DNA from: Ruania alba
Lineage (GTDB): Bacteria > Actinomycetota > Actinomycetes > Actinomycetales > Beutenbergiaceae
Assembly: GCF_900105765.1 (NCBI RefSeq)
Contig: NZ_FNTX01000001.1
Coordinates: forward strand, 434,001-498,000
Length of the DNA: 64,000 nucleotides
Reading direction: 5' to 3'
Under the pieces are notes generated by a model. The model made no database searches. It saw nothing but the letters and a program-made list of their open reading frames with translations, and was not told where the DNA came from. A program made the translations under genes and the position numbers. How positions within the stretch are numbered: position 1 is the stretch's first letter; each line of letters begins with the position of its first letter. Below, piece by piece: positions 31,961-55,086 of this stretch.

Positions 31961-32349
31961 GGGTTGTCCTGGACGCGAGTGCAGGGGTCGATGCTGTGCT
32001 CGCGAACTATCGCGGTTCTCGGGTGCTCGACGCGATGCAGGGGGCCGAGCTCTTGGCGCCGTGTTTGATCGACTCCGAGGTGATGTCGGCCTTGGCCCGC
32101 ATGGAGCGGGCGAGTTCCATCAGCGCGGCTGAGGCGAGGCGCGGGCTGGATGCCTGGCTGCGGCTCGCATGCGAACGAGTGCCCTCAGAACACCTACTCC
32201 ACGACGCGTGGTCTCGAAGAGCGGCCCTGCGCGTCTCGGACGCTCAGTACGTGGCGCTTGCCGCTGGGCTAGGCGCGCCGCTGCTCACGTGTGATGCTCG
32301 ACTGGCGCGGTCGCCGGTCGCCGGTGTGCAGATCCAGCTGATCGCCTGA
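31957..32349 (+). CDS. vapC: VapC-like PIN-domain toxin
   Basis: A 130-residue PIN nuclease, expected to cleave RNA when not bound by VapB. The acidic active site is visible: Asp in VVLDASAGVDAVL, the Glu/Asp pair in LIDSEVMSALAR, then SDAQYVALAAGLGAPLLTCD with two more Asp. Its target RNA cannot be read from the sequence. Confidence 0.87.
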   Translation: MRVVLDASAGVDAVLANYRGSRVLDAMQGAELLAPCLIDSEVMSALARMERASSISAAEARRGLDAWLRLACERVPSEHLLHDAWSRRAALRVSDAQYVALAAGLGAPLLTCDARLARSPVAGVQIQLIA

Positions 32350-32364
32350 AGCCGGAGGCACCCC

Positions 32365-33255
32365 TCACATCCCCTTCGGGTGCCATACCGTCTTCGTCTC
32401 GGTGAATGCGAGGATCGCCGCCAGCGACTGCTCGTTCTTCCAGTTCGGCTCGCTCTCGGTGGCCGGTCGTCGCACCCGCTTGAGGTTCTCGGCAGCGTCC
32501 GCCTCCACCTCGCCCCAGGTCGCGTCCGCGGCTCCGACGGCACCGGCCAGGTCCAGGGCGTTCACGTCCAGGTGACGCGCCAGGGGAGTGGCGAGCTCCG
32601 CCGTCCTGCCGGTGAGCACGTTGACCACACCGCCGGGGACGTCGGAGGTGGCGAGCACCTCGGAGAGGGTGATCGCGGGCAGCGGGCGGTCCTCGGAGGA
32701 CACCAGGACGGCCGTATTCCCGGTCACCAGGATCGGTGCGAGCACCGAGACCAGTCCGAGCAGTGAGGACTTCTGCGGCGCAAGCACTGCCACCACACCG
32801 GTGGGCTCGGGCACCGAGAGGTTGAAGTACGGGCCGGCCACCGGGTTCGCGTTCCCGGCCACCTGGGCCACCTTGTCCGTCCAGCCCGCGTACCAGACCC
32901 ACCGGTCGATCGCGGCGGAGACGGCATCCTCAGCCCGCCGCGGGGTGAGCCCCTCCCCGGCAGCCACATCGGCCACGAACTGGGCCCGGCGTCCCTCCAG
33001 CAGCTCGGCCACCCGGTACAGCACCTGCCCGCGGTTGTACGCCGTCGCCCCTGCCCACCCGGGCTGTGCCGCCCGGGCGGCGCGAACGGCATCGCGTGCG
33101 TCCTTGCGGGAGGCCTGGGCAGCGTTCGCCGCGAACTTTCCCTTGGCGTCGACCACCTCGTAGGTGCGGCCGGACTCCGAGCGGGGGAACTTCCCGCCGA
33201 TGAACAGCTTGTACGTCTTGCGCACGTCCACCCGTGCCGCCGTCGTGGTGCTCAT
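32365..33255 (-). CDS. Short aldehyde dehydrogenase-like protein lacking the catalytic cysteine
   Basis: A 296-residue ALDH-fold protein. It has the N-terminal part (YKLFIGGKFPRSESGRTYEV), the cofactor region GVVAVLAPQKSSLLGLVSVL and VNVLTGRTAEL, and then ends early. There is no cysteine anywhere in it, so it cannot form the thiohemiacetal of ALDH catalysis. Its start overlaps the stop codon of a complete ALDH gene by four bases. In the ALDH16 family a catalytic and a Cys-less ALDH domain are fused; this may be the split form. I infer a structural or regulatory partner of the full enzyme. Confidence 0.82.
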   Translation of the reverse strand: MSTTTAARVDVRKTYKLFIGGKFPRSESGRTYEVVDAKGKFAANAAQASRKDARDAVRAARAAQPGWAGATAYNRGQVLYRVAELLEGRRAQFVADVAAGEGLTPRRAEDAVSAAIDRWVWYAGWTDKVAQVAGNANPVAGPYFNLSVPEPTGVVAVLAPQKSSLLGLVSVLAPILVTGNTAVLVSSEDRPLPAITLSEVLATSDVPGGVVNVLTGRTAELATPLARHLDVNALDLAGAVGAADATWGEVEADAAENLKRVRRPATESEPNWKNEQSLAAILAFTETKTVWHPKGM

Positions 33256-34700
33256 CGGCCGATCCCTCCCTTGAGGTAGGGCGCCAAGCCATGGCGGCCC
33301 CCTTCGCGCCCGTACCCGGACTCCTTGTACCCACCGAACGGGCTGGTCGGGTCGAACCGGTTGAAGGTGTTCGCCCACACCACCCCGGCGCGCAGCTTGT
33401 CCGCCATCGCGAGGATGCGCGACCCCTTCTCGGTCCAGATGCCGGCCGACAGGCCGTAGGGGGTGTTGTTCGCCTTCGCTACCGCCTCGTCCGGGGTGCG
33501 GAACGTCAGCACCGACAGGACCGGCCCGAAGATCTCCTCCCGGGCGATCCGGTGCGCAGCCGAGACGTCGGTGAACACCGTGGGGGCGAAGAACCACCCG
33601 GTCTCCGGCATCGGGCAGTCACTGGTCCAGCGTGTGGCGCCCTCGTCCTCCCCGGCCTGGGTGAGCTCGCGGATCCGGTCCAGCTGGCGGGCGGAGTTGA
33701 TGGCGCCCACATCGGTGTTCTTGTCCATCGGGTCGCCCACCCGGAGGGTGCCGAGGCGGTCCTTGAGCCGGTCGGTCAGCTCGTCGGCGATCGACTCCTG
33801 CACCAGCAGCCGGGACCCGGCGCAGCACACCTGCCCCTGGTTGAAGAAGATGCCGTTCACGATGCCCTCGATGGCCTGGTCGATCGCGGCGTCCTCGAAC
33901 ACGATGTTCGCGGCCTTGCCGCCCAGTTCCAGGGTGGCGGGCACCCGGGAGCCGGCCAGCTGCCGAGCGATCTGCCGCCCGACGGCGGTGCTCCCGGTGA
34001 AGGCCACCTTGTCCACTCCCGGATGGGTCACCAGCGCCTGGCCGGTCGCACCGGCCCCGGTGACGATGTTCACCACCCCGGCCGGCAGGTCGGCCTGGCG
34101 CACCAGGTCGGCGAACAGCAGCGCCGTCAGCGGAGTGGTCTCGGCCGGCTTGAGCACCACCGTGTTCCCGGCGGCCAGCGCGGGGGCGATCTTCCACGCC
34201 AGCATCAGCAGCGGGAAGTTCCACGGGATCACCTGCGCGGCCACCCCGTGCGGCGTGGGGTTCGCCCCGAACCCGGCGTGCTCGAGCTTGTCCGCCCAGC
34301 CGGCGTAGTAGAAGAAGTGCGCGGCCGCCGTCGGGATGTCGACATCGCGGGATTCCCGGATCGGCTTGCCGTTGTCGAGGGTTTCCAGCACGGCGAACTC
34401 GCGGGCGCGCTCGGCCAGCAGCCGGGCGATCCGGAACAGGTACTTGGCTCGTTCGGAGCCCGGCATCGGGCCCCACACCTGGGTCTGCGCCTTGCGGGCG
34501 GCCTTGATAGCGCGGTCGATGTCGGCCTCGTCCGCCTCGGCAACTTCGGCGAGGACCTCCTCGGTGGCCGGGTTGATGGTCTTCATCGCCTGCCCGGAGG
34601 AGGCTTGCGTGAACTCGCCGTCGATGAACAGCCCGTAGGAGGAGTCGATGTCGACGACAGCGCGCGACTCCGGGGCGGGGGCGTACTCGAAGCGGGACAT
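33252..34700 (-). CDS. NAD-dependent aldehyde dehydrogenase
   Basis: A 482-residue complete ALDH. NAD-site motifs are VIPWNFPLLMLAWKIAPALA and FTGSTAVGRQIARQLA; the general-base Glu is in LELGGKAANIVF and the nucleophile is Cys292 in NQGQVCCAGSR. The EEIFGPVLSVL segment is also present. It lies 14 bases downstream of deoC, whose product acetaldehyde is the obvious substrate, giving acetate. It is coupled by overlap to the Cys-less ALDH-like gene. Confidence 0.93.
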   Translation of the reverse strand: MSRFEYAPAPESRAVVDIDSSYGLFIDGEFTQASSGQAMKTINPATEEVLAEVAEADEADIDRAIKAARKAQTQVWGPMPGSERAKYLFRIARLLAERAREFAVLETLDNGKPIRESRDVDIPTAAAHFFYYAGWADKLEHAGFGANPTPHGVAAQVIPWNFPLLMLAWKIAPALAAGNTVVLKPAETTPLTALLFADLVRQADLPAGVVNIVTGAGATGQALVTHPGVDKVAFTGSTAVGRQIARQLAGSRVPATLELGGKAANIVFEDAAIDQAIEGIVNGIFFNQGQVCCAGSRLLVQESIADELTDRLKDRLGTLRVGDPMDKNTDVGAINSARQLDRIRELTQAGEDEGATRWTSDCPMPETGWFFAPTVFTDVSAAHRIAREEIFGPVLSVLTFRTPDEAVAKANNTPYGLSAGIWTEKGSRILAMADKLRAGVVWANTFNRFDPTSPFGGYKESGYGREGGRHGLAPYLKGGIGR

Positions 34701-34714
34701 AGCAGCCTTCAGTC

Positions 34715-35749
34715 TCAGTCGATCGTGGCGTAGTCGGGGCCGGAGTAGGCGCCGTGGGCGAGCTTCTGGCGCTGCAGCAGCACATCGTTGAGCAGTGAGG
34801 AAGCGCCGAACCGGAAGAACGCCGGGTCCAGCCATGCTTCCCCGGCTACCTCGTTCACGGCCACCAGGTACTTGATCGCATCCTTGGAGGTGCGGATCCC
34901 ACCGGCGGGTTTCACCCCCACCTGCACTCCGGTGGCGGCGAGGAAGTCGCGCACTGCCTCGAGCATGAGCACCGTCACCGGCAGGGTCGCGGCGGGGGAG
35001 ACCTTCCCGGTGGAGGTCTTGATGAAGTCGGCCCCGGCCAGCATGGAGAGCCAGGAGGCGCGGCGCACATTGTCATAGGTGGACAGCTCGCCGGTCTCCA
35101 GGATCACCTTCAGGTGCGCGGGTTCTCCGGTGCGCTGCTGGCAGATCTCCCGGACGGCGACGATGTCATCGAAGGCCTTCCGGTAATCGCCGGACAGGAA
35201 GGCGCCCCGGTCGATCACCATGTCGATCTCCTCGGCGCCGGCCTCCACCGCATCGGTGGTGTCAGCGAGACGGGAGGTGTGTCCTGCTCGCCCGGCGGGG
35301 AACGCCGTCGCCACGGCTGCCACGTTGATCGGTGACGAGCCTACGGCCTCCTTCGCCACGGTCACCATGTCCCCGTACACGCAGACGGCGGCCGGTCGGG
35401 GGCAGGAGAGATCGCCCGGTTCCGGGGTGCGCGCCTTCGCGACGAGGGAACGCACCCGACCCGGGGTGTCGGCGCCTTCGAGCGTGGTGAGGTCGATCAT
35501 CGCGATGACCATGTCGAGTGCCCACGCCTTCGACGTGGTCTTAATCGACCGCGTGCCGAGCACGGCCGCCCGGCCATCCAGGCCCACCTTGTCCACGCCC
35601 GGCAGGCCGTGCAGGAAGGTGCGCAAGGCGCGGTTGCTCAGGTCGGCCGATCCGACGACGGCAGTCGCGTCCGCCGCGACCTGATCCGCCGTGCGCGTGG
35701 CCGGGTGGGTGCCGCCGCTGGTCGAGCGCGCTGGGGACGTCACAGTCAT
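34715..35749 (-). CDS. deoC: Deoxyribose-phosphate aldolase
   Basis: DeoC splits 2-deoxyribose-5-phosphate into glyceraldehyde-3-phosphate and acetaldehyde. The 344-residue product has the Schiff-base lysine motif ADFIKTSTGKV and the second catalytic lysine in VGVKPAGGIRTSKDA, along with EIDMVIDRGAFLSGDY. It is longer at the N-terminus than E. coli DeoC, as in other actinobacteria. The ATG at 35749 was chosen. It is 32 bases after the deoxyribosyltransferase gene and heads the aldehyde dehydrogenase pair. Confidence 0.95.
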   Translation of the reverse strand: MTVTSPARSTSGGTHPATRTADQVAADATAVVGSADLSNRALRTFLHGLPGVDKVGLDGRAAVLGTRSIKTTSKAWALDMVIAMIDLTTLEGADTPGRVRSLVAKARTPEPGDLSCPRPAAVCVYGDMVTVAKEAVGSSPINVAAVATAFPAGRAGHTSRLADTTDAVEAGAEEIDMVIDRGAFLSGDYRKAFDDIVAVREICQQRTGEPAHLKVILETGELSTYDNVRRASWLSMLAGADFIKTSTGKVSPAATLPVTVLMLEAVRDFLAATGVQVGVKPAGGIRTSKDAIKYLVAVNEVAGEAWLDPAFFRFGASSLLNDVLLQRQKLAHGAYSGPDYATID

Positions 35750-35781
35750 GGGGCGAGTGTATGTCACGTGTTCTTGCCTTC

Positions 35782-36351
35782 TCAGTGGTCGGTGCGCAAG
35801 GCAGATCTGGCGCGGTCGAGGCACTCGGTGAACACCTCCAGATCCCGCCACAGGTCCTCTGGGCGGACAGTGGTGCGGACCATCGCCCAGCCGCGCGACG
35901 CGATACCGCCTTCCATCATGAGGTTGTCGGACCAGCCGTGGTTCTCCACGACCCCGCCATCGGCGAGCCGCAGCGCCCCGTCTGACTCCTCGAGGGGGCC
36001 GAACACCTCGGCTACCCGATCGGCGTAGCTGCGCGGGTCGTTCGTGTAGGCGAAGGTGGGCTTCTTGCTGGCAATCATGTACCCGACCTCGTAGACGGTG
36101 CCCGGATCGGCGCTGATGCCGCGGAAGGGTGTGAGATTGGCGATGCACAGGTCGGCCGAGTCCATCAGTACCTCGTTGCGACGGCTGATAGCTAATCCGA
36201 GGTGATCGGTGTCGGCGTGCGCCGCGAACTCACCGTGCAACTCGGCGGGAGCGAAGCCGTAGGTACAGGCCAGCTCTCGCTTGTGTTCGATGAGTTCACG
36301 GCCGTCGTGGAGGAATACCTCAGGGCCGGCGAGATAGACGGTCAATGTCAC
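35782..36351 (-). CDS. Nucleoside 2-deoxyribosyltransferase family protein
   Basis: A 189-residue protein of the NDT family, which moves or hydrolyses the deoxyribose of nucleosides through a covalent Glu intermediate. It shows YLAGPEVF at the N-terminus, SADLCIANLTPFRG and the catalytic segment DPGTVYEVGYMIASKKP. The start overlaps the ribokinase stop by four bases. In this setting it could release or exchange the base from a deoxynucleoside, or act on an analogue; the true substrate is not known. Confidence 0.85.
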   Translation of the reverse strand: MTLTVYLAGPEVFLHDGRELIEHKRELACTYGFAPAELHGEFAAHADTDHLGLAISRRNEVLMDSADLCIANLTPFRGISADPGTVYEVGYMIASKKPTFAYTNDPRSYADRVAEVFGPLEESDGALRLADGGVVENHGWSDNLMMEGGIASRGWAMVRTTVRPEDLWRDLEVFTECLDRARSALRTDH

Positions 36352-37328
36352 GAGTGCCCCTGGATTGTCGCGGGGGTAAGATCTCGATCTGCTCCCCGGT
36401 CCAGGAGGGCGTCGACGTCGCCAGCTGTGGGGATGCTTGGTGAGGCACCTGCGACGGTGACGGCGAGGGTGCCGGCGGCCATCCCACGTCGGACGGCGTC
36501 GTCGGGGGTGAGTCCAGCAGCCAACGAGCCGGCCAGGTAGCCCGCAAACGCGTCACCGGCCGCCGTCGTGTCGACCACGACGATCTCGTGTTGGGCATCG
36601 AGGGCGTGAGAGTCGGACTTGGTGACGACGACAGCCCCGTCCCCAGCCCGAGTGATGATCGCCGTGCCCACACCGTGGGCGGTGAACCAGTGGCCCGCGG
36701 TCACGGCACTCTCGACGTCCGTTACCTGGATCCCGGTGAGTTCGGTGGCCTCGGTCTCGTTCGGCGTCACGATGTCCACCAGGGCCCAGATTTTCTCGGG
36801 TAGTGGCGCTGCTGGCGCTGGGTCCAGGATTGTGGTCAGACCTGCCGAGCGTCCGCACTGCAACGTGTGAGCCACGATGTCCAACGGTGTCTCCAGCTGT
36901 GTCAGCAGCACGCGGCAGTTCCGTCGAGTCGATGCCACCGCGGTGTCGACGTTCTCGACTGTCAGCGCCGCATTCGCGTTCGGGACGATGACGATGTCGT
37001 TCTCTCCGTCCTCGGTCACGCGAATATGGGCGAGGCCGGTCGGCCCTTCGACAGGAATGAGATGGCTCAGGTCGATCCTGTGATCGGAGAGCTCGTCGTT
37101 GATCATCGTCCCGAAGGCATCGGTGCCCACGCAGCCGACGAAGTAGGTGGGCGCGCCGCTCGCTGCCGAAGCGATGGCCTGATTGGCGCCTTTCCCGCCG
37201 GGAACGAGCGTGGAACCGCCACCTCGGACCGTCTCTCCTGGGCGCGGGCTTCGGGCGCTCCGGGCAGTGACGTCGATCGTCGCGCTGCCTACGACGAGGA
37301 CGCCGGAGTCAGGAACGCGAGCATTCAT
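36348..37328 (-). CDS. rbsK: Ribokinase (PfkB family)
   Basis: A 326-residue PfkB kinase that phosphorylates a pentose at O5. The two PfkB signatures are present: GGKGANQAIASAASGAP at the N-terminal side, with GCVGTDAFG after it, and DTTAAGDAFAGYLAGSLA with the catalytic Asp at the C-terminal side. Ribose is the default substrate, but with deoC three genes downstream it could equally be a deoxyribokinase; the two cannot be told apart by eye. It follows the LacI gene by 11 bases. Confidence 0.9.
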   Translation of the reverse strand: MNARVPDSGVLVVGSATIDVTARSARSPRPGETVRGGGSTLVPGGKGANQAIASAASGAPTYFVGCVGTDAFGTMINDELSDHRIDLSHLIPVEGPTGLAHIRVTEDGENDIVIVPNANAALTVENVDTAVASTRRNCRVLLTQLETPLDIVAHTLQCGRSAGLTTILDPAPAAPLPEKIWALVDIVTPNETEATELTGIQVTDVESAVTAGHWFTAHGVGTAIITRAGDGAVVVTKSDSHALDAQHEIVVVDTTAAGDAFAGYLAGSLAAGLTPDDAVRRGMAAGTLAVTVAGASPSIPTAGDVDALLDRGADRDLTPATIQGHS

Positions 37329-37339
37329 GCATGGACCTT

Positions 37340-38428
37340 TCAGCTCGGATGGTCACGACGAGTGATCGCGCGGTACAGCGAGACGGTGTAATCGTCCCGG
37401 TCGGTCGCAGCGCAACCGCAGGACTCACGGCGGACGAGATGGACCGGGAGTAAAGTGGCCGCGCTCATCCGTCCCGGGTCTGCAATGCGTTCGATGAGCC
37501 GCTCGACGGCCGCCCTGCCGATCTCAGCGAACGGTTGAGCCATCGTGGTCAACGAGGGGGTGACATCCGCTCCGGTGGGGATGCCGTCGAAGGAGACCAG
37601 CGCGACGTCCTCGGGGCAGCGCAGCCCCAGATCATTGAGCGCTCGCATCACGCCGAGTGCTTGCTCGTCGCTGGCGCAGAAGATCGCATCGACCTCAGCG
37701 GACTCGATCATGCGGGTGGTCTCGCGATATCCCGCTGCTCGCTGGAAGACGGCATGTCGGAGGAGATGGTTCTCTGGCTCGATCCCCCGGCTGGTCATCG
37801 CGGACCGCCACCCCGATACCCGCTCGACTGTTGAGCGCACGTTGGCAGGGCCAGCGATGCACCCGATTCTGCGCCGCCCGTGCTCGAGCAGGTGATTCGT
37901 TGCTTGAAATCCGCCCTCCCAGTTGCCCACCATGACCGTGGCTACTTCGGCCCCTCCCGGGACGTACCGGTCGATCGCGACCCACGGAAGGCCCCGCTCC
38001 TTGAGATGCTCCAATCCGCTCATCCCGGCGTGCGCAGGGAGCAGGATCAGCCCGTCGACGCGGCGCTCGACGAAACTGCGGATGTACTGCTCCTGCAGTG
38101 CGCCGTCCTCGCCGGAGTCGCCCACCATGAGCGCCAGCGAGGATTCGAATGCCTCCCGTTGAATCGAGTGCATCAGCTCGGTGAAGAACGGGTTTGCCAG
38201 GTCGGGCACGATCAGCCCGATCGTCATAGTTCGTTGCGTGCGCAGTGACCGGGCAACGTGGTTCGGCCGGTAGTCAAGGTCCCTGACGGCTTTCAGGACG
38301 CGATCGCGAGTGTCGGGCGAGACCTTGCGTGGGCCGCCATTCAGGACATAACTCACCACGGCCGGGGACACGCCGGCGCGTTCGGCGACGTCGGCCCGCC
38401 GGGCCGGCGGCTGAGATCCTCCGTTCAT
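37340..38428 (-). CDS. LacI-family transcriptional regulator
   Basis: A 362-residue repressor. The DNA-binding headpiece is ADVAERAGVSPAVVSYVLNG followed by the hinge YRPNHVARSLRTQRT. The ligand domain starts TIGLIVPDLANPFFTELMHS and is of the periplasmic-binding type. The C-terminal tail RRESCGCAATD is unusual in having Cys-Gly-Cys. The ATG at 38428 has GGAGG a few bases before it. It is the first gene of the leftward set and divergent from the sugar importer, so it most likely controls both directions. Confidence 0.92.
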   Translation of the reverse strand: MNGGSQPPARRADVAERAGVSPAVVSYVLNGGPRKVSPDTRDRVLKAVRDLDYRPNHVARSLRTQRTMTIGLIVPDLANPFFTELMHSIQREAFESSLALMVGDSGEDGALQEQYIRSFVERRVDGLILLPAHAGMSGLEHLKERGLPWVAIDRYVPGGAEVATVMVGNWEGGFQATNHLLEHGRRRIGCIAGPANVRSTVERVSGWRSAMTSRGIEPENHLLRHAVFQRAAGYRETTRMIESAEVDAIFCASDEQALGVMRALNDLGLRCPEDVALVSFDGIPTGADVTPSLTTMAQPFAEIGRAAVERLIERIADPGRMSAATLLPVHLVRRESCGCAATDRDDYTVSLYRAITRRDHPS

Positions 38429-38451
38429 GTGTCCTCCTTCAGCAACACGAG

Positions 38452-38525
38452 TTGATCGTATCAGACGTTGAAAGACTGCGGAAAAATGACGCACTCTTGA
38501 CACAGAATCAACAGAATGCTCTACT
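38452..38525. promoter_or_regulatory. Divergent control region: two candidate LacI operators and a -35/-10 pair
   Basis: TGAT-cgt-ATCA (38453-38463) and TTGA-cacagaa-TCAA (38497-38511) are inverted repeats between the LacI gene and the importer. TTGACA (38497-38502) with TCTACT 17 bases later (38520-38525) forms a plausible rightward promoter, and the second palindrome overlaps its -35 box, where a repressor would block it. The region is visibly more AT-rich than its surroundings. Confidence 0.5.
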
Positions 38526-38554
38526 CGTATTGCTCACAACGAGGTGGTGATGAC

Positions 38555-39556
38555 ATGTCAGGGTCGATGACTCTGCAGGAACCGCGGACCGATCCGCGAA
38601 CCCGTGGACGGGCGGCACAGGCGCGAGCCCTTCGCGCTCGTCGACCAGGCTGGTCCTTTGTGCTTGCCGGTGCGATCGTGATCGGTGTCTTCCACGTCGG
38701 CGCGATCATCTTCGACGTGGTGATGTCGTTCACGGACTGGAGTCTCGCGGGAGCGACGTTCAACTACGGTCAGAACTATGCGGACCTGATCGCCAGTGCC
38801 GAGTTCGTCAACGCGTTGGCTGTGACCCTGTTCTATGTGCTCGGCACCGTTCCGGTGACCTTGGCGCTGGCGATGCCGATCGCGTACTTGATGCACACCA
38901 CGCTGGCGCGGTACTCGATCTATCGAATCCTGGTTTTTACGCCGTACGTGGTGCCGACCGTTGCCGGCGCGCTGATCTTTCAGACAGTGTTCGGACCGAC
39001 GCCCGGCAGTCTCGCGAACGCGTTGCTCGGGATCTTCGGTGCGGAACCGCGCACCTGGCTGCTGGATGGCAACGGACTCTTCGCCATCCTCCTGGACCCG
39101 CTCGGCGTACAGCTGAGCGGCCTCTGGGCGGGACCCAGCGTGGCGCTGATGGTGGTGACCGTGGTTCAGGTCTGGAACCTGCTCGGCTTCACTGTGGTGG
39201 TGCTGCTGGGGGCCCTATCCAACGTCGATCCGAGCATGTTCGAGGCTGCTCGCATCGATGGTGCGGGTGGGGTCCGGTTGTTCCGCAACATCGCCATGCC
39301 GCTGGTCAAGCCGACCCTGCTCTTCCTCTCCGTGGCGCTAACGGTGTTCACGATGCGTGAGTTCAACCTGCCGTATGTGCTCGCCGGCGGCGGCCCGTTC
39401 GGCAGCACCGAGACCCTCTCGCTGATGATGGTGCGCCAATTCTGGGAAGACAACCAATTGGGCATGGGCGCGACCACGGCGATCGTCCTTGCCCTGCTGA
39501 TCGTGGGTCTGAGCTGGGTTCAGTTCAAGGTGAGCAAGGGAGAGCAGTATGACTGA
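38555..39556 (+). CDS. Sugar-type ABC transporter permease (MalF-like)
   Basis: A 333-residue permease with six helices and the EAA loop EAARIDGAGGVRLFRNIAMP. It belongs to the carbohydrate-uptake class-1 family, whose members import sugars, glycosides and glycerol-phosphate compounds. I chose the ATG at 38555 after GAGGTGGTG; the upstream ATG at 38516 lies at the promoter. It overlaps the second permease gene by eight bases. No ATPase gene is in the cluster, so a shared ATPase (MsiK-like) encoded elsewhere would be needed. Confidence 0.92.
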   Translation: MSGSMTLQEPRTDPRTRGRAAQARALRARRPGWSFVLAGAIVIGVFHVGAIIFDVVMSFTDWSLAGATFNYGQNYADLIASAEFVNALAVTLFYVLGTVPVTLALAMPIAYLMHTTLARYSIYRILVFTPYVVPTVAGALIFQTVFGPTPGSLANALLGIFGAEPRTWLLDGNGLFAILLDPLGVQLSGLWAGPSVALMVVTVVQVWNLLGFTVVVLLGALSNVDPSMFEAARIDGAGGVRLFRNIAMPLVKPTLLFLSVALTVFTMREFNLPYVLAGGGPFGSTETLSLMMVRQFWEDNQLGMGATTAIVLALLIVGLSWVQFKVSKGEQYD

Positions 39557-40424
39557 GAACGCTGTCCGAAGTCGACCTGCTGCACCGGTGGCTCGACGCC
39601 GACCTCGGGGTAGAAACAGGGGTCTCGTCGCCTCCCATATCGTGATCGGGCTGGCCGTCCTCGTGATGATCTTCCCGTTGTACTGGATGCTCTCGACGGC
39701 GCTGAAGGATCTGCAGGAAGCGCTCGCCGTCCCGCCGACGCTCTGGCCAACCTCGCCCAGCCTGGAGGCCTTCCCGGACGCACTCAGCGAGGCGCCGTTC
39801 GGGCGCTACGTGGCCAATACCGTCCTGGTCGCCAGCGTGACGGCGGTCGCGAACGTGTTCATCGGCGCGATGACAGGGTACGGGCTCGCCCGCGGCGCGT
39901 TTCGCGGTAAGCGGCTCGTCCTCGCGATGATCCTGATCGCTGCCATGGTGCCGAGCGAAGCCACGTTCATCCCCAACTACGTTTTGATCCGGGAACTCGG
40001 CTGGTACGACACCTACGCAGCCCTGATTGTGCCGTGGCTGGTCACCGCATTCAGCATCTTCTTGTTCCGCCAGAGCTTCCTCACCTTCCCCGAGTCGCTC
40101 GCCGAGGCAGGTCGCCTCGACGGCGCCTCCGAGTGGCGGATCTTCTGGTCCATCGTGTTCCCGATCGCGCGGTCGACCTCGCTGACCGTTCTCATCCTCA
40201 GCTTCCTGTGGTCGTGGAACGCCTTCCTCTGGCCCCTGCTCGTCACCTCGAGCACCGAGATGCGCACCCTGCAACTGGGGTTGTCCGTGTTCCAGACCGA
40301 GGGCGGGGTCTACGTGAACCTCCTAATGGCTGCGACGACGCTCGCCGTGATCCCTGTGATCGTCATGTTCGCCATCACTCAGAAGTACGTCATCAACGGG
40401 ATCGGTCAAGGAGCAATCAAATGA
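39549..40424 (+). CDS. Sugar-type ABC transporter permease (MalG-like)
   Basis: A 291-residue partner permease with six helices and the EAA loop EAGRLDGASEWRIFWSIVFP. The first 30 residues are basic and cytoplasmic. It overlaps the binding protein gene by four bases (ATGA), so the order is permease, permease, binding protein, the reverse of most such operons. Confidence 0.93.
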   Translation: MTENAVRSRPAAPVARRRPRGRNRGLVASHIVIGLAVLVMIFPLYWMLSTALKDLQEALAVPPTLWPTSPSLEAFPDALSEAPFGRYVANTVLVASVTAVANVFIGAMTGYGLARGAFRGKRLVLAMILIAAMVPSEATFIPNYVLIRELGWYDTYAALIVPWLVTAFSIFLFRQSFLTFPESLAEAGRLDGASEWRIFWSIVFPIARSTSLTVLILSFLWSWNAFLWPLLVTSSTEMRTLQLGLSVFQTEGGVYVNLLMAATTLAVIPVIVMFAITQKYVINGIGQGAIK

Positions 40425-41755
40425 CACGCAGACGCACCCGTGTACTCGCGGGCACGAGCATGGCAGCCGCACTGGTGCTGGCGGGCTGTGCTCCCAGCGA
40501 GGAAGACGGTCCCACCGACATTGCTACAGCAATCGAAGAGGACGTGACCATTTCCTTCTGGCACGTCTATCAGGGTGCTGACCAGGAGGCCATCGATGCA
40601 CTTGTCGCATCGTTCGAGGACGAGCACCCACAGGTCAGCGTCGAGGTGCAGTACACCGGCGGCTTCGGGGAGCAGAATCAGAAGATCATCTCCTCGCTCC
40701 AGGCGGGCGACCCTCCGAACGTCGCGATCGCATTTCCGGCCCAGGTGCTCGACTACGAGACCTCCGGTCTTGTGCTCGACCTCACCTCGTATATCGAGAG
40801 TCCCGAGGTGGGCCTCGGCGAGGATGAGCTCGCCGACATCTTCGAGATCGAGCGAACCATCAATCGCTACGACGTGGCAGACGGCAACTACCTGAGTTTC
40901 CCGTTCACCGCCAACGTCATGGTCATGTACTACAACGAAGACCTGTTGGGCTCGGTGGGGATCGACGATCCGCCGGCTACCTGGGACGACTTCGCTGAGC
41001 AGTGCGCCATCATCAAGGACGAGCTGGATCTGCCCTGCTTCTCCGCCCGGGGCGACGGATCGTCGATGAACGGTGTGGCCGGAGCTTTCGGTGGGCTGAT
41101 CCGGGACGAGACAGGCGCTCCCGCCGTGGACAGTGCGGAGTGGCTTGAGGCATTGCAGATGTTCGAGGATCTCGCCGCCTCCGGGTACGTCGAGGTGGCG
41201 GGCGGTGGCACGGCGCAGGTGACCGGCCCCGACCTGCAGTCCTTCATCTCCGAACGTGCGGCGTTCGTTCTCGGGACCAGCCGGAACATCGGCTTCTTCC
41301 CGGACGCGATCGGAGATGCATTCTCCTGGCAGGCAGCACCGCCGCCACAGGCCGCCGCGACCGACGCGCCCGTCACGGTGCTGTACGGCCCAGGTGTGAC
41401 TGCCTTCGACTCGGACACCGCACAGGAGGACCTCGCGTCCTGGCTGTTCATGGAGCACCTGGCCAGCGCCGAGTCGCAGGAGGCGTGGGCGCTGTCGACA
41501 GGACAGCTGCCGATTCGCGAGTCGGTGGCAAACTCGGAGGCGTTCCAGGCCGAGCTCACCGACGACCCCGCCACCGCGGTCGCCTACGGATTGGTCCCAG
41601 ACACCGTATGGGACGGAGCGCTCGGACCCAACGGCGTGATCGCCGGCATCTCCCAGCAGGAGCGTGAGTTGCTCGCCAGCGTGATGAACGCCGTCCTGCT
41701 GGGCGACATGGACGCTGAAACTGCGCAGCAACAGCTGATCACCGGGGTCTCGTGA
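40421..41755 (+). CDS. Sugar-type ABC transporter binding lipoprotein
   Basis: A 444-residue family-1 extracellular binding protein. It has a signal peptide with lipobox LAGC (residues 20-23), then VTISFWHVYQGADQEAIDAL, and the central PFTANVMVMYYNEDLL typical of this family. Since the next genes encode cytosolic sulfatases and a nucleoside hydrolase, the ligand is probably a sulfated nucleoside-like or ribosyl compound rather than a plain sugar. That is inference from context only. It overlaps the sulfatase gene by four bases. Confidence 0.92.
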   Translation: MTRRRTRVLAGTSMAAALVLAGCAPSEEDGPTDIATAIEEDVTISFWHVYQGADQEAIDALVASFEDEHPQVSVEVQYTGGFGEQNQKIISSLQAGDPPNVAIAFPAQVLDYETSGLVLDLTSYIESPEVGLGEDELADIFEIERTINRYDVADGNYLSFPFTANVMVMYYNEDLLGSVGIDDPPATWDDFAEQCAIIKDELDLPCFSARGDGSSMNGVAGAFGGLIRDETGAPAVDSAEWLEALQMFEDLAASGYVEVAGGGTAQVTGPDLQSFISERAAFVLGTSRNIGFFPDAIGDAFSWQAAPPPQAAATDAPVTVLYGPGVTAFDSDTAQEDLASWLFMEHLASAESQEAWALSTGQLPIRESVANSEAFQAELTDDPATAVAYGLVPDTVWDGALGPNGVIAGISQQERELLASVMNAVLLGDMDAETAQQQLITGVS

Positions 41756-44067
41756 CGACAGGACCGTCCGTTCTGGCCAATCGTGGCCCGGACGGACGGT
41801 CCGAGACCAAGGCCAGGGACGGCGTCGGGACAAGAGGAAGGACTCACGAGATCGTGTACGGAGATGGACATAGGAGCGGGCGAACGGTTGCAGACGCGGA
41901 GCCGTCGTGGCCGGCGCACCACGTTGCCAAGAACGATCGACCGAACGTGCTGGTGGTGATGCTGGACGACACGGGCTTCTCCGATCTTGGCTGCTACGGC
42001 TCCGAGATCCGCACGCCTACGATTGACAGGCTCGCCGCCGCCGGGCTGCGGTACTCCAACTTCCACGTGACACCGCTGTGCTCGCCGACCCGCGCCAGTC
42101 TGCTGACGGGACGGAACCATCACTCGGTCGGGATGCGATTCCTCGCTGACCTCGACACCGGGTACCAGAATTCCCGGGGCCGCGTCGACCCCGACGTGAC
42201 GACCTTGCCAGCGGCGCTCCGCGAACGCAGCTACGGCACCTATCTCGTGGGGAAGTGGCACCTGACCCCTGCGCACGAGATCACGCCGTCAGGGCCCTAC
42301 CAGAACTGGCCGCTGGCCAAGGGTTTCGACCGCTTCTACGGTTTCCTCGACGGATGCACCGATCAGCACACACCCGAGTTGTACGAGGACCACCACCAGG
42401 TCTCGCCTGGTGCCGACGGGTACCACCTGTCCACCGACCTGTGCGACCGCGCGATCGGTTACGTCACCGAGCATGTGACGTTCCGCCCTCACGACCCGTT
42501 CTACCTGCAACTGGCCTTCGGGGCGACCCATGCGCCGTTCCAAGCCCCAGAGGAGTACATCGCCCCCTACCGCGACATCTTTGCGAAGGGCTGGGACCGC
42601 ACGCGTACGGACCGGCTGCACCGCCAAGTCGAACTCGGCATCGTGCCGGAGGAGACCGCTCTGGCGGACCGGAACCCGAGCGTGCCGGCGTGGTCCGATC
42701 TCAGCGACGATGAGCAAGAACTGTACGTGCACCTCCAAGCCGCCTACGCCGGGTTCCTCGAGCATGCGGACGCCCAGCTCGGCCGCGTGATCGAGGCACT
42801 TGAGCGGACTGGCGAGCTCGACAACACGATCGTCATGGTGATGTCGGACAACGGCGCCAGCCGTGAGGGTGCCCGCAACGGTGGTGTGGACACGAATGTG
42901 GTGTACTCCCACGTGCCGTACTCGCTCGAACAACAGCGCCGGCGTCTCGGCGAGATCGGCGGCCCTGGTGCCGGTGCGCACTACCCAGAAGGGTGGGCGA
43001 TGGCGGGGAACACGCCGTTCCGGTACTGGAAGCAGTTCGTCGACCTCGGCGGGGTTCGGTCACCGTTGATCGTTCACTGGCCCGAGGGTGTTGCCGACGT
43101 GGACGCGGTACGTTCGCAGTTCGCACATGTGATCGATCTGGCGCCGACGGTGCTGGACTGTGCGGGCGCTGAGCCTTCCCCGCAGATGCATGGCGAGTCG
43201 ATCGCCGAGTCGTTCCGACGGTCTGCCGCGCCCCCCACGCGCAGCACGCAGTATTGGGAGATGTTCGGGCACCGAGCGATCCTGCACGGGCGCTGGCGGG
43301 CTGTGACTGCGCACGAGGAAGGAGCCGGGTACGACCTGAGCGAGTGGCGTCTGTACGACACCGAGACCGACTTCGCCGAGACCACCGATGTCGCGGCTGA
43401 CCACCCCGATGTGGTGCAGCTGCTCGATGAGTTGTGGTGGCGCGAAGCGGAGCTGCACGGTGTCTTCCCCGTCGACGACCGCCCCTTGAAGCTCCTGCTC
43501 AACGAGGGAGTCGGAGTTCGGCTCGGGCTGGCCGGTCAGGACCAGGTGGTGCTGCGTCCGGGGGCTGGGCATGTGCCGGTGTCGACCAAGCTTGCCGGCA
43601 TCGGGCGCTCGCAGCGCGTGCGCGCGCATCTGCACGCGTGGGACTCCTCGCACGAAGGCGTGATGCTGGCCAGTGGGACCGGCTATGGCGGGTATGTCCT
43701 CTACATTCAGGGCGGGCAGCTCGTCTTCGAGCATGTTGCGATAGGGGAACGCGTTCGCGTCCAAGGCCGGCTCACCACAGCCGGTGATGTCACGGTCGGA
43801 TTCGAGGTCCGCACCGCCGATGACCATTCGGCACAGGTGCGCTTGTTGCAGGGTGAGGAGGAGATCGGGAAGGTCGATGTTCCCTTCACGTTCGGGCATC
43901 TCTCCTTCTGGGGTGTGGATGTGGGCCGGGACCGCCTGTGCCAGGTCTCCGACGCCTATCCGGGTGAGTTCGCGTTTCCGGACGAGGTCCTGGATCGGGT
44001 GGAGATCACCGTGTTGTCTGCCTTGAACGAGGACGATCTGGTCGATCTCGCGATGCGGGAGTCGTGA
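41752..44067 (+). CDS. Type-I (formylglycine) sulfatase, arylsulfatase-like, 771 aa
   Basis: A large alkaline-phosphatase-fold sulfatase. The active-site motif is CSPTRASLLTGR with Cys110, which must be oxidised to formylglycine. Calcium ligands lie in MLDDTGFSDLGC and MSDNGASREG. After the catalytic domain (about residues 60-560) there is a C-terminal beta domain of about 200 residues, as in the long arylsulfatase class. No signal peptide is present, so it should act in the cytosol. The start may be the GTG at 41752 (overlap) or the GTG at 41854 after AGGAAGGA. No formylglycine-generating enzyme is encoded in the window. Confidence 0.92.
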   Translation: MTTGPSVLANRGPDGRSETKARDGVGTRGRTHEIVYGDGHRSGRTVADAEPSWPAHHVAKNDRPNVLVVMLDDTGFSDLGCYGSEIRTPTIDRLAAAGLRYSNFHVTPLCSPTRASLLTGRNHHSVGMRFLADLDTGYQNSRGRVDPDVTTLPAALRERSYGTYLVGKWHLTPAHEITPSGPYQNWPLAKGFDRFYGFLDGCTDQHTPELYEDHHQVSPGADGYHLSTDLCDRAIGYVTEHVTFRPHDPFYLQLAFGATHAPFQAPEEYIAPYRDIFAKGWDRTRTDRLHRQVELGIVPEETALADRNPSVPAWSDLSDDEQELYVHLQAAYAGFLEHADAQLGRVIEALERTGELDNTIVMVMSDNGASREGARNGGVDTNVVYSHVPYSLEQQRRRLGEIGGPGAGAHYPEGWAMAGNTPFRYWKQFVDLGGVRSPLIVHWPEGVADVDAVRSQFAHVIDLAPTVLDCAGAEPSPQMHGESIAESFRRSAAPPTRSTQYWEMFGHRAILHGRWRAVTAHEEGAGYDLSEWRLYDTETDFAETTDVAADHPDVVQLLDELWWREAELHGVFPVDDRPLKLLLNEGVGVRLGLAGQDQVVLRPGAGHVPVSTKLAGIGRSQRVRAHLHAWDSSHEGVMLASGTGYGGYVLYIQGGQLVFEHVAIGERVRVQGRLTTAGDVTVGFEVRTADDHSAQVRLLQGEEEIGKVDVPFTFGHLSFWGVDVGRDRLCQVSDAYPGEFAFPDEVLDRVEITVLSALNEDDLVDLAMRES

Positions 44068-45059
44068 CGATGAGCGCCCCATACATTCTGGACGTCGATA
44101 CCGGGACCGATGACGCGCTCGCGCTGATCCTGGCAGCGCGCCACCCAGACATCGATCTGCGCGCCGTCACATGCGTGGCTGGGAACACCAGCATCGAGAA
44201 CGTCGTCCGAAACACCGGTGCGGTCCTGCAAGCGATCGGCGCCCCCGGTATGCCGGTGGCAGGCGGTGCCGAGCGACCGCTGCTGGAGCCGCATCGGGAT
44301 GCCGATCACGTGCACGGCGTGAATGGACTCGCCGGGATCGACCTCCCTGCTTCGCTGGTGCCGCCAGCGCGGGTCCATGCAGTGGAACTGCTCCGGCAGC
44401 AACTGACCTCAAGCGAACAGCCGATCACTCTGGTGGCGCTGGGCCCCTTGACCAACGTGGCGCTGCTACTGCGCATGTACCCGGCGGCAGCAGCACGGAT
44501 CGGACGGATCGTGCTGATGGGTGGGTCAGCCTCGGTGGGAAACGCCACCCCAGTGGCAGAGTTCAACGTGTGGCACGATCCCGAGGCCGCCGCCGTCGTG
44601 TTCGGCACGTCCGTGCCGCTGACCATGTACGGGTTGGACGTCTTCACCGGCCTGCAACTGACGGACGATCAGGTCGCGAATATGGCGGGAGCGGAGGATC
44701 CTGGGGCGAACCTCGTCCACCGGATCCTGACCGGTCGGCCGACGCTCGTCGACGAAGGGTATGGATTGGGCGACGCCGGCGCAGTCTGTGCGGCTGTTGA
44801 CCCGGCAGGCATGGAGACGGAGCGTGCACGGGTTGCCGTGGAGTGCGGCGGTGTCCTCGCGCGTGGTCAGACGATCGTAGACCGTCGTGCTCGGCCGGGA
44901 GAGGCGGACCTGCGCGGTGCGCGCTTCGGCGAGTACGCCGAGGTGGGCCTGGCTATCGACGTGGACCGATACCGCGAGCTGTTCCTGCGACATGCATGCC
45001 AGGTCGAGAGCGGTGTCCATGGACGTCGTGATGCGCGTGCGCAGGTCCGGGCAGGGTGA
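44064..45059 (+). CDS. Nucleoside hydrolase (IunH family)
   Basis: A 331-residue N-ribosyl hydrolase that cleaves nucleosides to ribose and base. The calcium-binding signature DVDTGTDDALAL is at the N-terminus and the remaining motifs follow: VAGNTSIENVVRNTGAVL, LVALGPLTNVALLL, MGGSASVGNATPVAEFNVW and DPEAAAVVF. It overlaps the first sulfatase gene by four bases (GTGA) and precedes the second. It has no signal peptide. The gene order suggests that the sulfatases first remove sulfate from its substrate. Confidence 0.93.
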   Translation: MTMSAPYILDVDTGTDDALALILAARHPDIDLRAVTCVAGNTSIENVVRNTGAVLQAIGAPGMPVAGGAERPLLEPHRDADHVHGVNGLAGIDLPASLVPPARVHAVELLRQQLTSSEQPITLVALGPLTNVALLLRMYPAAAARIGRIVLMGGSASVGNATPVAEFNVWHDPEAAAVVFGTSVPLTMYGLDVFTGLQLTDDQVANMAGAEDPGANLVHRILTGRPTLVDEGYGLGDAGAVCAAVDPAGMETERARVAVECGGVLARGQTIVDRRARPGEADLRGARFGEYAEVGLAIDVDRYRELFLRHACQVESGVHGRRDARAQVRAG

Positions 45060-45102
45060 ACGCCGTCGAACAGCGAGAGTACGGACGTAGGAGGAGAACG
45101 AG

Positions 45103-46479
45103 ATGACGACAGAGCACGGAGCCGATGCGGCACCCGGAAGCCCATCTGGCTCGGCAGCGAATCGGCGGCCGGACGTTGTCCTGCTCATCTGTGATCAGAT
45201 GCAGGCACAGCGATTGTCCTGGGGTGACCCCTCCCTGACCCCCAACATCGACGGCCTCGCGGCCCGCGGTGCTACTTTCGACCGGGCGTACTGCTCCTCC
45301 GCGCAGTGCACCCCGTCGCGGGCGTCTTTGCAGACAGGGCTGTATCCGCACGAGGCAGGTGTGATGGTCATCTACGGCTTTGGTGGGCACACCGGCCACC
45401 TGGACGACCGGCACACCACGATCGCTCATGCGTTCTCCGAGGCCGGCTATTCCACCGCCCTGTTCGGGAAGTCGCACTTCGGCTATCCGATCGACCGTCT
45501 GGGGTACGACGGCGGTGTCGAACGCGGGGCGGGGAGTTCCATGGCGAAGGTCGACCGCCAGATCTCCGACGACGCCATCGAGTACGTTGCTGACCACGAC
45601 CCGGACCGGCCGATGTTCCTGGTGGTTTCGTGGCACCAGCCGCATCCACCGTTCGAACCGGTCGAGGAGTATCTCGAGCGGGCGCGGGATGCGGTCGAGA
45701 TCCCGGCCTCGTTCGACGACGATCTCGCCGGTCGACCGCTCTACCAGACGGCGCGACGTAGCCACCGTGAGGGTAGCTACACGGAGGAGGGACTGCGCGA
45801 GGAGCAGGCCGAGTACCTGTCGATGATCGCGGCCATGGATCACGAGGTGGGCCGGGTGTTGGATGCCGTGGCGGCCAGAGAGCGGGAGTCCGTGGTGGCG
45901 TTCACCTCTGACCACGGCGACATGATGGGTGGCCACGGGTTGCGACTGAAGGGGACGTTCCCGTACGAGGAACTGTTCAGAGTTCCATTGATCATTTCGG
46001 CACCACAGATCACTCCCGGGACCCGGGTGGACGGACTGACCGTCAACGTGGAGCTACCCGGCACGCTGCTCGATCTGGCGGGGGTGCAACGACCGGAGGT
46101 ATGGCCCGATCGCCCTTCGGTTCCAAGTGTCGCCGGCGGTGGTGCCGGACCGGAACAGATCTTCATGGAGCATTATGGCTCGTACTGGGGTTTCCACCCG
46201 TTCCGCATGGTGCGCACTGATCGGTACAAGTATGTGCGGCACTACGGACCCGGTGAGGGTGACGCTGAGCTGTACGACCTGGTGGCGGACCCGCACGAGA
46301 TGGTCAACCGTGCCTACGACCCCGACTTTCGACCCATTCGTGACGACCTGCACGAGCGGGTGGACACCTGGTGGGAGCAGACTGGTGGCCGGGACTGGAA
46401 GTACTACGAGTCCGACGAGTTCCGGCTCGGTGGTGCAGACACGCTCAGCTGGGACAACGAGCTGTGGGCACCGACCTGA
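45103..46479 (+). CDS. Type-I (formylglycine) sulfatase, 458 aa
   Basis: A shorter sulfatase than the one upstream, of a different subfamily resembling choline-sulfatase and iduronate-sulfatase types. The motif is CTPSRASLQTG with Cys69. Metal ligands are in LLICDQMQAQ and FTSDHGDMMGGHG, and KGTFPYEELFRVPLI is the conserved central segment. There is no signal peptide. It starts after GGAGGAG and is the last gene of the rightward operon; its stop directly abuts the stop of the convergent CYTH gene. Confidence 0.92.
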   Translation: MTTEHGADAAPGSPSGSAANRRPDVVLLICDQMQAQRLSWGDPSLTPNIDGLAARGATFDRAYCSSAQCTPSRASLQTGLYPHEAGVMVIYGFGGHTGHLDDRHTTIAHAFSEAGYSTALFGKSHFGYPIDRLGYDGGVERGAGSSMAKVDRQISDDAIEYVADHDPDRPMFLVVSWHQPHPPFEPVEEYLERARDAVEIPASFDDDLAGRPLYQTARRSHREGSYTEEGLREEQAEYLSMIAAMDHEVGRVLDAVAARERESVVAFTSDHGDMMGGHGLRLKGTFPYEELFRVPLIISAPQITPGTRVDGLTVNVELPGTLLDLAGVQRPEVWPDRPSVPSVAGGGAGPEQIFMEHYGSYWGFHPFRMVRTDRYKYVRHYGPGEGDAELYDLVADPHEMVNRAYDPDFRPIRDDLHERVDTWWEQTGGRDWKYYESDEFRLGGADTLSWDNELWAPT

Positions 46480-55049: not shown

Positions 55050-55086
55050 ATGCCCGAAGATACCGCCCACCGTGCACAATGAACGG

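What the first reader, a model, noticed from the sequence alone, without database searches (positions are those of the whole stretch)
35782..46479. Locus combining two cytosolic sulfatases, a nucleoside hydrolase, ribokinase and a deoxyribosyltransferase: candidate sulfated-nucleoside catabolism
Seen: a sugar-type importer (no ATPase), a 771-aa sulfatase (Cys110, CSPTR), an IunH-type nucleoside hydrolase and a 458-aa sulfatase (Cys69, CTPSR) run rightward with overlaps of four to eight bases (43-base gap before the last gene). A LacI regulator, ribokinase and nucleoside deoxyribosyltransferase run leftward. Known: the sulfatases need formylglycine, the hydrolase gives pentose plus base, and ribokinase makes the 5-phosphate. 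Inferred: because no sulfatase carries a signal peptide, the sulfated compound must be imported whole, desulfated in two positions or from two compounds, then split. Sulfated nucleosides or N-ribosides fit all the parts. I know of no described pathway with this set. A sulfated pentoside of algal or animal origin is an alternative.
Basis: partly seen in the sequence, partly recalled or inferred. Interest (0 to 1): 0.82.

Follow-up and report, generated by a model that had tools for sequence, protein, structure and literature searches.

The report
Acquired sulfated-nucleoside breakdown gene island
An actinobacterium carries an acquired nine-gene block that looks built to import sulfated nucleosides (compounds reported from spider venom), strip off the sulfate inside the cell and feed on the sugar; related blocks with interchangeable parts occur in other actinobacteria, but no substrate has yet been tested.

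Summary
In detail: all named genes are present with the stated overlaps and sulfatase motifs. The block is a discrete insertion: 6 of 8 fetched relatives have deoC directly beside the gene that follows it, and its G+C, 65.1%, lies below all 65 sampled segments outside it, 69.3-70.8%. It adjoins native deoC and aldehyde dehydrogenase genes.

Comparison supports sulfated nucleosides. The seven closest 771-aa sulfatases form one clade (100/100). Six have the nucleoside hydrolase next door; the seventh has a dedicated second purine nucleoside phosphorylase plus phosphosugar mutase instead. A second sulfatase family recurs with phosphorylase+mutase or with hydrolase. In two Streptomyces-genus loci one palindrome precedes each unit. 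Seven of seven more distant Streptomyces-genus relatives lack the hydrolase.

Mechanism (inferred): import intact, cytosolic desulfation, N-glycosidic cleavage, phosphorylation to pentose-5-phosphate. Natural candidates exist: 2-sulfo- and 2,5-disulfoguanosine of spider venom. The searches made found no such pathway in print. No assay exists.

The parts
35770..46479 (.). Inserted island of nine genes; left junction between about 35736 and 35782, right junction at 46480
   Evidence: Flanks align to four relatives at 85.6-90.2% up to 35729-35741 and from 46480-46482 on, with nothing aligned between apart from one 188-base 69% match elsewhere in L157; adjacency of the flanking genes in 6 of 8 fetched relatives; G+C 65.1%
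37340..38428 (-). LacI-family regulator, RbsR-like
   Evidence: Pfam LacI/Peripla_BP_3; best NCBIfam RbsR 250.1 bits, below its cut-off 382; ATG start
36348..37328 (-). Ribokinase-type PfkB kinase
   Evidence: PF00294; TIGR02152 276.9 bits, cut-off 299.65; best solved relatives ribokinases
35782..36351 (-). Nucleoside 2-deoxyribosyltransferase relative
   Evidence: PF05014 92.4 bits; distant to solved 6QAI, 1.9e-8; absent at E<=1e-10 from 23 other family genomes
38429..38554 (.). 126-base divergent regulatory region
   Evidence: Between LacI and permease ATG starts; operator not identified
38555..39556 (+). ABC permease A
   Evidence: PF00528; 56% to L127 permease
39549..40424 (+). ABC permease B
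   Evidence: PF00528; 64% to L127 permease
40421..41755 (+). Solute-binding lipoprotein
   Evidence: PF13416/PF01547 on the longer ORF; 43% to L127 binding protein; LVLAGC start
41752..44067 (+). 771-aa formylglycine sulfatase (sulfatase A), Cys110
   Evidence: PF00884 207.8 bits; catalytic residues invariant in three relatives; clade
44064..45059 (+). IunH-type nucleoside hydrolase
   Evidence: PF01156 276.9 bits; DVDTGTDD, Gly236-Asp237
45103..46479 (+). 458-aa formylglycine sulfatase, Cys69
   Evidence: PF00884 153.7 bits; CTPSR
34715..35749 (-). Native deoC (deoxyribose-phosphate aldolase) adjoining the island
   Evidence: TIGR00126 156.2 bits, cut-off 117.3; in 18 of 24 family genomes
33252..34700 (-). 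Native aldehyde dehydrogenase
   Evidence: PF00171; 81-96% identical copy beside deoC in all 8 fetched relatives
32365..33255 (-). Native second aldehyde dehydrogenase
   Evidence: PF00171 on the longer ORF; 82-95% identical copy in all 8 fetched relatives

Best explanation
The block is a horizontally acquired catabolic island for sulfated nucleosides. The binding protein and two permeases, with an ATPase encoded elsewhere, import the sulfated nucleoside whole. The two formylglycine sulfatases remove sulfate in the cytosol, probably from two hydroxyls of the pentose or from mono- and disulfated forms. The nucleoside hydrolase splits the free nucleoside into base and ribose, and the kinase makes ribose-5-phosphate. 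The deoxyribosyltransferase relative with the adjoining native deoC and aldehyde dehydrogenases could take a deoxyribose branch. The LacI protein represses the two divergent units. Shown here: gene content, insertion, catalytic motifs, linkage and part-swapping across lineages, a formylglycine-generating enzyme in the genome. Inferred: substrate, order of steps, regulation in this strain, the shared ATPase, the deoxyribose branch.
For: 1. Linkage partly found without selecting for it: searches with sulfatase A alone brought in 11 further genomes; 4 belong to the near clade, of which 3 have the hydrolase adjacent and 1 a phosphorylase and mutase. 2. The seven near sulfatases are one clade, 100/100, and the six hydrolase-linked ones another, 99/97. 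3. Swap: L126 has two sulfatases, an ABC importer, GntR, a purine nucleoside phosphorylase above equivalog cut-offs and a phosphosugar mutase; that phosphorylase is an extra copy, since G585 has two and the 19 other genomes searched one each. A protein nearest to solved guanine deaminases stands beside it. 4. The second sulfatases of L126, L127 and L162 are 53-65% identical and the GntR of L126 and L162 51%, although one locus uses phosphorylase+mutase and the other hydrolase+ribokinase. 5. L127 repeats the window's importer-sulfatase-hydrolase content with an FGE gene added. 6. TGAAATCGATTTCA-type sites precede the importer, FGE and sulfatase A-hydrolase units of L127, and the transporter and sulfatase A-hydrolase units of L122; none in 20 simulated sequences for either. 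7. The five sulfatase A N-termini printed (window, L122, L123, L126, L127) show no signal peptide by eye. 8. An FGE is encoded in this genome.
Against: No substrate, expression or growth data. Among linked loci a kinase gene was seen only in the window and L162, and the deoxyribosyltransferase only in the window. The window's 458-aa sulfatase is only 30-32% identical to the second sulfatases elsewhere, and L123-L125 show one sulfatase only. The linked hydrolases are not one clade (4 label changes, at least 3 forced; 3 and 2). Of the 80 best hydrolase relatives 76 show no sulfatase in the stretch held. Unlinked near cases: L043, sister of the linked Nonomuraea hydrolases, L163, L189. Three congeners have a hydrolase relative, 57-58%, without a sulfatase A or B match in the 3.9 kb held. 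Five plasmid relatives of the second sulfatase family, 35-52% identical, show no linked hydrolase or phosphorylase. Gly stands for the usual active-site His in 68 of 68 hydrolase rows, so hydrolysis itself is untested. In L126 the phosphorylase follows a 142-base gap and the guanine-deaminase relative runs opposite to the operon; whether it is an extra copy was not tested.
Confidence: 0.72

Rival explanations
1. Ordinary nucleoside uptake plus sulfate scavenging: the importer and hydrolase handle plain nucleosides, and the sulfatases act on unrelated sulfate esters that happen to share the island in a sulfatase-rich genome.
For: 57 PF00884 matches in this genome, so chance neighbours are likelier than usual; hydrolase relatives stand without sulfatases in 76 of 80 loci; the linked hydrolases are not one clade.
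Against: The sulfatase lies inside the operon, overlapping the hydrolase by four bases; the same sulfatase clade keeps the hydrolase in six genomes and a phosphorylase in a seventh; one palindrome precedes the units of L122 and L127.
Confidence: 0.12
2. A sulfated pentoside or other sulfated glycoside of algal or animal origin, with the IunH protein cleaving a non-nucleoside bond.
For: Sugar-type importer and SBP_bac_8 binding protein; hydrolase subfamily lacks the usual active-site His.
Against: No glycosidase was identified in the near loci among the proteins scanned; L126 replaces the hydrolase with a purine nucleoside phosphorylase above its cut-offs, which acts on N-glycosides of purines (recalled).
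Confidence: 0.07
3. Phosphorylated rather than sulfated nucleosides: the formylglycine enzymes are phosphodiesterases or phosphonate hydrolases and the pathway eats nucleotides.
For: The sulfatase fold family includes phosphonate monoester hydrolases; weak PF01663 scores; 2W8S matches the 458-aa protein at 4.1e-26.
Against: Sulfatase A matches arylsulfatases best (7ALL 7e-81, 1HDH 3.5e-77), and neither 2W8S nor 2VQR is among the 60 best rows; the 458-aa protein matches choline sulfatase and a carrageenan sulfatase best, nearly tied.
Confidence: 0.05

Closest known systems
Ribonucleoside utilisation operons (hydrolase, ribokinase, regulator; rih/uri type)
   Same: Nucleoside hydrolase, ribokinase-type kinase, RbsR-like regulator and importer in one unit
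   Different: Two formylglycine sulfatases lie inside the unit; RihA, RihC and UriH scores are below cut-off
Deo-type salvage (purine nucleoside phosphorylase, phosphopentomutase, DeoC)
   Same: L126 uses phosphorylase and phosphosugar mutase; the window island adjoins native deoC
   Different: The L126 phosphorylase is an additional copy tied to two sulfatases and an importer
Bacteroides ribokinase-nucleoside hydrolase locus (BT2804 region)
   Same: Ribokinase and nucleoside hydrolase in one nutrient-uptake locus (PMC10434189, passage)
   Different: The passage names no sulfatase in that locus; outer-membrane Sus-type uptake instead of an ABC or MFS importer
Choline-O-sulfate utilisation (betC)
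   Same: Sulfate ester cleaved by a formylglycine sulfatase in the cytosol (recalled)
   Different: Here the product would go to N-glycosidic cleavage; choline-sulfatase scores 82.5 and 183.1 against a cut-off of 433.45
Pseudomonas arylsulfatase AtsA (1HDH)
   Same: Among the nearest solved relatives of sulfatase A, catalytic residues kept
   Different: About 190 further C-terminal residues and a conserved nucleoside-gene context

Membership tests
S1 formylglycine sulfatase (PF00884) | C-x-P/A-x-R cysteine motif and catalytic residues | tested here: met
   CSPTR and CTPSR; ten residues equivalent to the AtsA set invariant in three sulfatase A sequences; residue roles recalled
S1 formylglycine sulfatase (PF00884) | formylglycine-generating enzyme in the cell | tested here: met
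   PF03781, 259.1 bits at G000 C1:593014-593844
S1 formylglycine sulfatase (PF00884) | hydrolyses a sulfate ester | not testable with these tools
   needs an enzyme assay
IunH-type nucleoside hydrolase (PF01156) | family score and DxDxxxDD motif | tested here: met
   276.9 bits; DVDTGTDD
IunH-type nucleoside hydrolase, group I | active-site His before the C-terminal Asp (group definition recalled) | tested here: not met
   Gly236-Asp237 where RihA 4WR2 has His-Asp; Gly in 68 of 68 rows
Ribokinase (TIGR02152) | equivalog score over cut-off | tested here: not met
   276.9 against 299.65 bits; the next model that is not ribokinase scores 89.5
Nucleoside 2-deoxyribosyltransferase (PF05014) | family score over gathering cut-off | tested here: met
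   92.4 against 28.8 bits; no NCBIfam match
DeoC (TIGR00126), native neighbour | equivalog score over cut-off | tested here: met
   156.2 against 117.3 bits
Purine nucleoside phosphorylase (L126 variant) | equivalog scores over cut-off | tested here: met
   NF006054 308.5/218 and TIGR01698 305.7/302.6
Phosphopentomutase role of the L126 PGM_PMM protein | a model that names the substrate, over cut-off | tested here: inconclusive
   only phosphohexose/phosphoglucosamine mutase models, all below cut-off; role inferred from its 4-base overlap with the phosphorylase gene
Sulfated-nucleoside utilisation system (proposed) | activity on sulfated nucleosides | not testable with these tools
   needs an assay

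The most novel reading that the evidence does not exclude
The true substrates are sulfated guanosines (2'-sulfate and 2',5'-disulfate), the compounds so far reported from spider venoms, and actinobacteria have repeatedly assembled and exchanged pathways to eat them, which implies a sizeable, unrecognised environmental pool of sulfated nucleosides from arthropods or from unknown microbial or plant sources.
Probability: 0.3. Interest if true: 0.9.

Novelty: new variant of a known kind. Interest (0 to 1): 0.76.

Why it matters
Sulfated nucleosides are known as natural products, but I found no route by which microbes break them down. If right, this gives the first genetic handle on their recycling, sulfatases with a new substrate class that could serve as tools for making or analysing nucleoside sulfates, and a marker for finding where such compounds occur. 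It also turns a question about the environmental reach of sulfated nucleosides into one that a few assays can settle. The swap of hydrolase+kinase for phosphorylase+mutase is a clear example of two chemistries serving one inferred purpose.

Tried and rejected
Close copies of the whole nine-gene island: none seen. The 458-aa sulfatase has no match at E<=1e-100 in the 23 other family genomes and the deoxyribosyltransferase none at E<=1e-10. Of 434 hydrolase relatives in genome contigs only the 80 best were kept and looked at; the other 354 were not seen, and the 80 loci range from 4.6 to 21.0 kb, 62 of them 20 kb or more.

Plasmid relatives of sulfatase A: I opened 4 of the 722 records with a match (L095-L098); no nucleoside gene is named beside them. 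Plasmid relatives of the hydrolase: 2 of 402 records opened; L162 has a sulfatase and ribokinase, L163 no sulfatase. Plasmid relatives of the second sulfatase family, besides L162 itself: 5 of the remaining 894 records opened (L191-L195); none shows a hydrolase or phosphorylase match, but L192, L194 and L195 carry no gene annotation and were only scanned with my own queries; L191 has a phosphopentomutase annotated about 8 kb away.

Arthrobacter-genus hydrolases at E<=1e-75: 4 of 204 genomes; three are the linked ones, the fourth (G440, L189) has no sulfatase match in 19.5 kb.

Window operator: the L122/L127 palindrome is absent from the window, and the inverted repeats at 38380-38600 are short. 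Sites at two mismatches also occur inside genes: L124 9908, L125 9846, L126 9707, and far from the hydrolase in L063 and L079.

In the 26-row sulfatase tree L107 is a fragment on a very long branch. No structure prediction was run.

Control for sulfatase A: 7 of 7 Streptomyces-genus loci at 43-45% identity to the window's lack the hydrolase in the 19.5 kb fetched. One of them, L133, was partly scanned with Pfam: oligopeptide-type importer and short-chain dehydrogenase, with an aldehyde dehydrogenase match.

The confidence of the best explanation and of the novel case is unchanged.


Full report
WHAT IS THERE. The finding's genes are present as described. Rightward: two sugar-type ABC permeases, a lipoprotein-type binding protein, a 771-aa sulfatase (Cys110, CSPTR; here 'sulfatase A'), an IunH-type hydrolase and a 458-aa sulfatase (Cys69, CTPSR), with overlaps of 8, 4, 4 and 4 bases and one 43-base gap. 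Leftward: a LacI regulator, a ribokinase-type kinase and a deoxyribosyltransferase relative. The leftward run goes on, after 32 bases, into deoC (TIGR00126 over cut-off) and two aldehyde dehydrogenase genes. Thymidine phosphorylase (25639-26928), adenosine deaminase (27821-28912), a phosphosugar mutase (52303-54180) and purine nucleoside phosphorylase (54177-55097) stand near, so the region is a nucleoside-salvage neighbourhood. The genus is probably Ruania: hydrolase rows from two congeners are identical to rows from named Ruania genomes.

AN INSERTION. DeoC is found in 18 of 24 family genomes at E<=1e-60; the deoxyribosyltransferase relative only in this genome (1 of 24 at E<=1e-10), and a close homologue of the 458-aa sulfatase only in this genome (1 of 24 at E<=1e-100). 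At E<=1e-80 the hydrolase has relatives (57-58%) in three congeners (4 of 24 with this genome), with no match to the island's sulfatases in the 3.9 kb held around each. I fetched the deoC surroundings of 8 of the 18. In 6 of the 8 the gene that follows the island (46480-47118) lies directly beside deoC; in L159 two other called genes intervene and in L161 that gene was not called. In four relatives the sequence aligns up to 35729-35741 and again from 46480-46482, at 85.6-90.2%, with nothing aligned between, apart from a 188-base stretch at 69% that lies elsewhere in L157. Island G+C is 65.1% against 69.3-70.8% in 65 overlapping segments of the same length outside it. The nine genes thus form a lineage-specific unit set beside deoC.

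THE LINKAGE IS CONSERVED. Of 434 hydrolase relatives in genome contigs the best 80 were kept. With eleven sulfatase queries 4 of the 80 show a sulfatase in the stretch held (L017, L024, L063, L079) and 76 none; in L017 and L024 it is sulfatase A, directly upstream. I then searched with sulfatase A of those two loci alone: 4 of 206 genomes of the Arthrobacter genus and 9 of 392 of the Streptomyces genus have a relative at E<=1e-220, the query genomes included; with the window's own protein 1 of 394 class genomes, this one, at E<=1e-200. All 13 places were fetched. Seven sulfatases, the window's included, form the near group (the six others are 50-61% identical to it). Six of the seven have the hydrolase immediately adjacent: window, L122, L123, L124, L125, L127. 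The seventh, L126, has a nucleoside phosphorylase instead. The other seven, all of the Streptomyces genus and 43-45% identical, have no hydrolase in the 19.5 kb fetched, 7 of 7. In a 26-row tree the near seven are one clade (100/100) and the six hydrolase-linked ones another (99/97). The hydrolases themselves are not one clade: the label needs 3 changes in the 68-row tree and 4 in a 27-row tree, so the linkage has probably arisen more than once, or been lost.

PARTS ARE SWAPPED, CHEMISTRY IS KEPT. L127: permease, permease, binding protein, 461-aa sulfatase, FGE, sulfatase A, hydrolase, LacI on one strand, with gaps of 360, 81 and 219 bases among the last five genes. L122: MFS, sulfatase A, hydrolase, LacI, with FGE, a different sulfatase, a second MFS and a GntR beside them. 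L123-L125: MFS, sulfatase A, hydrolase, and LacI in L123 and L125; none was called in L124. Nonomuraea L063 and L079: hydrolase divergent from an MFS and a sulfatase 71% identical to the other sulfatase of L122. L162, on an Arthrobacter plasmid: sulfatase, MFS, GntR, hydrolase, ribokinase. L126: two sulfatases, ABC importer, purine nucleoside phosphorylase and phosphosugar mutase on one strand, with gaps of 140 and 142 bases; on the other strand GntR, a guanine-deaminase relative and FGE. Its phosphorylase is not the housekeeping gene: G585 carries two, and each of the 19 other genomes searched carries one, 60-63% identical to it. The second sulfatases of L126, L127 and L162 are 53-65% identical and the GntR of L126 and L162 51%. 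The same regulator-sulfatase pair thus goes once with phosphorylase+mutase and once with hydrolase+ribokinase. Both sets turn a nucleoside into pentose-5-phosphate (established biochemistry, recalled). This is the strongest argument for a nucleoside core.

REGULATION. TGAAATCGATTTCA, at up to two mismatches, occurs in L122 at 12184, 13650 and 13710 and in L127 at 10642, 11826, 16690 and 16778: upstream of sulfatase A-hydrolase and of MFS in L122, and of sulfatase A-hydrolase, FGE and importer in L127. In 20 first-order simulated sequences for each locus none occurred. The LacI proteins of the two loci are 67% identical. Related sites lie before the MFS gene twice in L123 and L124 and once in L125. 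The window has no such site; its LacI is 31-33% identical to theirs.

ENZYMES. Sulfatase A keeps the catalytic set in three relatives and matches arylsulfatase structures best (7ALL, 1HDH). The 458-aa protein matches a choline sulfatase and a carrageenan sulfatase best, nearly tied. An FGE is encoded elsewhere in the genome. The hydrolase carries the DxDxxxDD motif but has Gly in place of the active-site His, as do all 68 rows aligned; group names and residue roles are recalled. The kinase is ribokinase-like but under the equivalog cut-off. Where the other linked loci get a kinase was not tested.

SUBSTRATE. A review passage reports 2,5-disulfated and 2-sulfated guanosine from brown recluse venom, with sulfated guanosine derivatives as its major small molecules (PMC3202818, passages). 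[quoted passage not shown] Sulfated purine glucosides come from a beetle pupal case (PMC6940665, passages); those are glucosides, not ribosides. Two sulfatases would suit a disulfate. Guanosine is hinted at by the class of the L126 phosphorylase and by the guanine-deaminase relative. The ecological source is open.

IS IT IN PRINT? Nine searches of the held library gave no such pathway. Most papers were judged from the listing alone; passages were read in six (PMC6832493, PMC6940665, PMC6116190, PMC9038784, PMC3202818, PMC10434189), and in PMC8155685 the term stood only in a reference. One passage shows a Bacteroides locus with ribokinase and nucleoside hydrolase and names no sulfatase in it. 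The library holds open-licence papers only, and the primary spider paper was not held.

VERDICT. It stays a hypothesis without assay: known enzyme families in a combination I did not find described.

Noticed in passing
whole genome G000: 57 PF00884 matches in 4.83 Mb, among them a 978-aa open frame with two sulfatase matches (C1:2138150-2140510).
   Followed up: no
window 44064-45059 and 67 relatives: Gly stands where RihA has the active-site His in 68 of 68 aligned rows of this nucleoside hydrolase subfamily.
   Followed up: partly
window 31706-32349: Two small overlapping ORFs (84 and 130 aa) next to the aldehyde dehydrogenase genes that look like an RHH-PIN toxin-antitoxin pair by eye; not scanned.
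   Followed up: no
L095-L098: Plasmid relatives of sulfatase A: three haloarchaeal loci with an FGE gene, two of them with a bile acid:sodium symporter gene, and Paracoccus L097 with an ABC importer, FGGY kinase and class II aldolase.
   Followed up: no
L128-L134: Seven Streptomyces-genus relatives of sulfatase A, each beside an aldehyde dehydrogenase match; L133 also has an oligopeptide-type importer and a short-chain dehydrogenase. Probably another, unknown sulfate ester.
   Followed up: partly
L127 3997-5409: D-hydantoinase/dihydropyrimidinase (TIGR02033 over cut-off) near the L127 module.
   Followed up: no
window 46480-47118: 212-aa gene without a Pfam match that lies beside deoC in 6 of 8 fetched relatives.
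   Followed up: no
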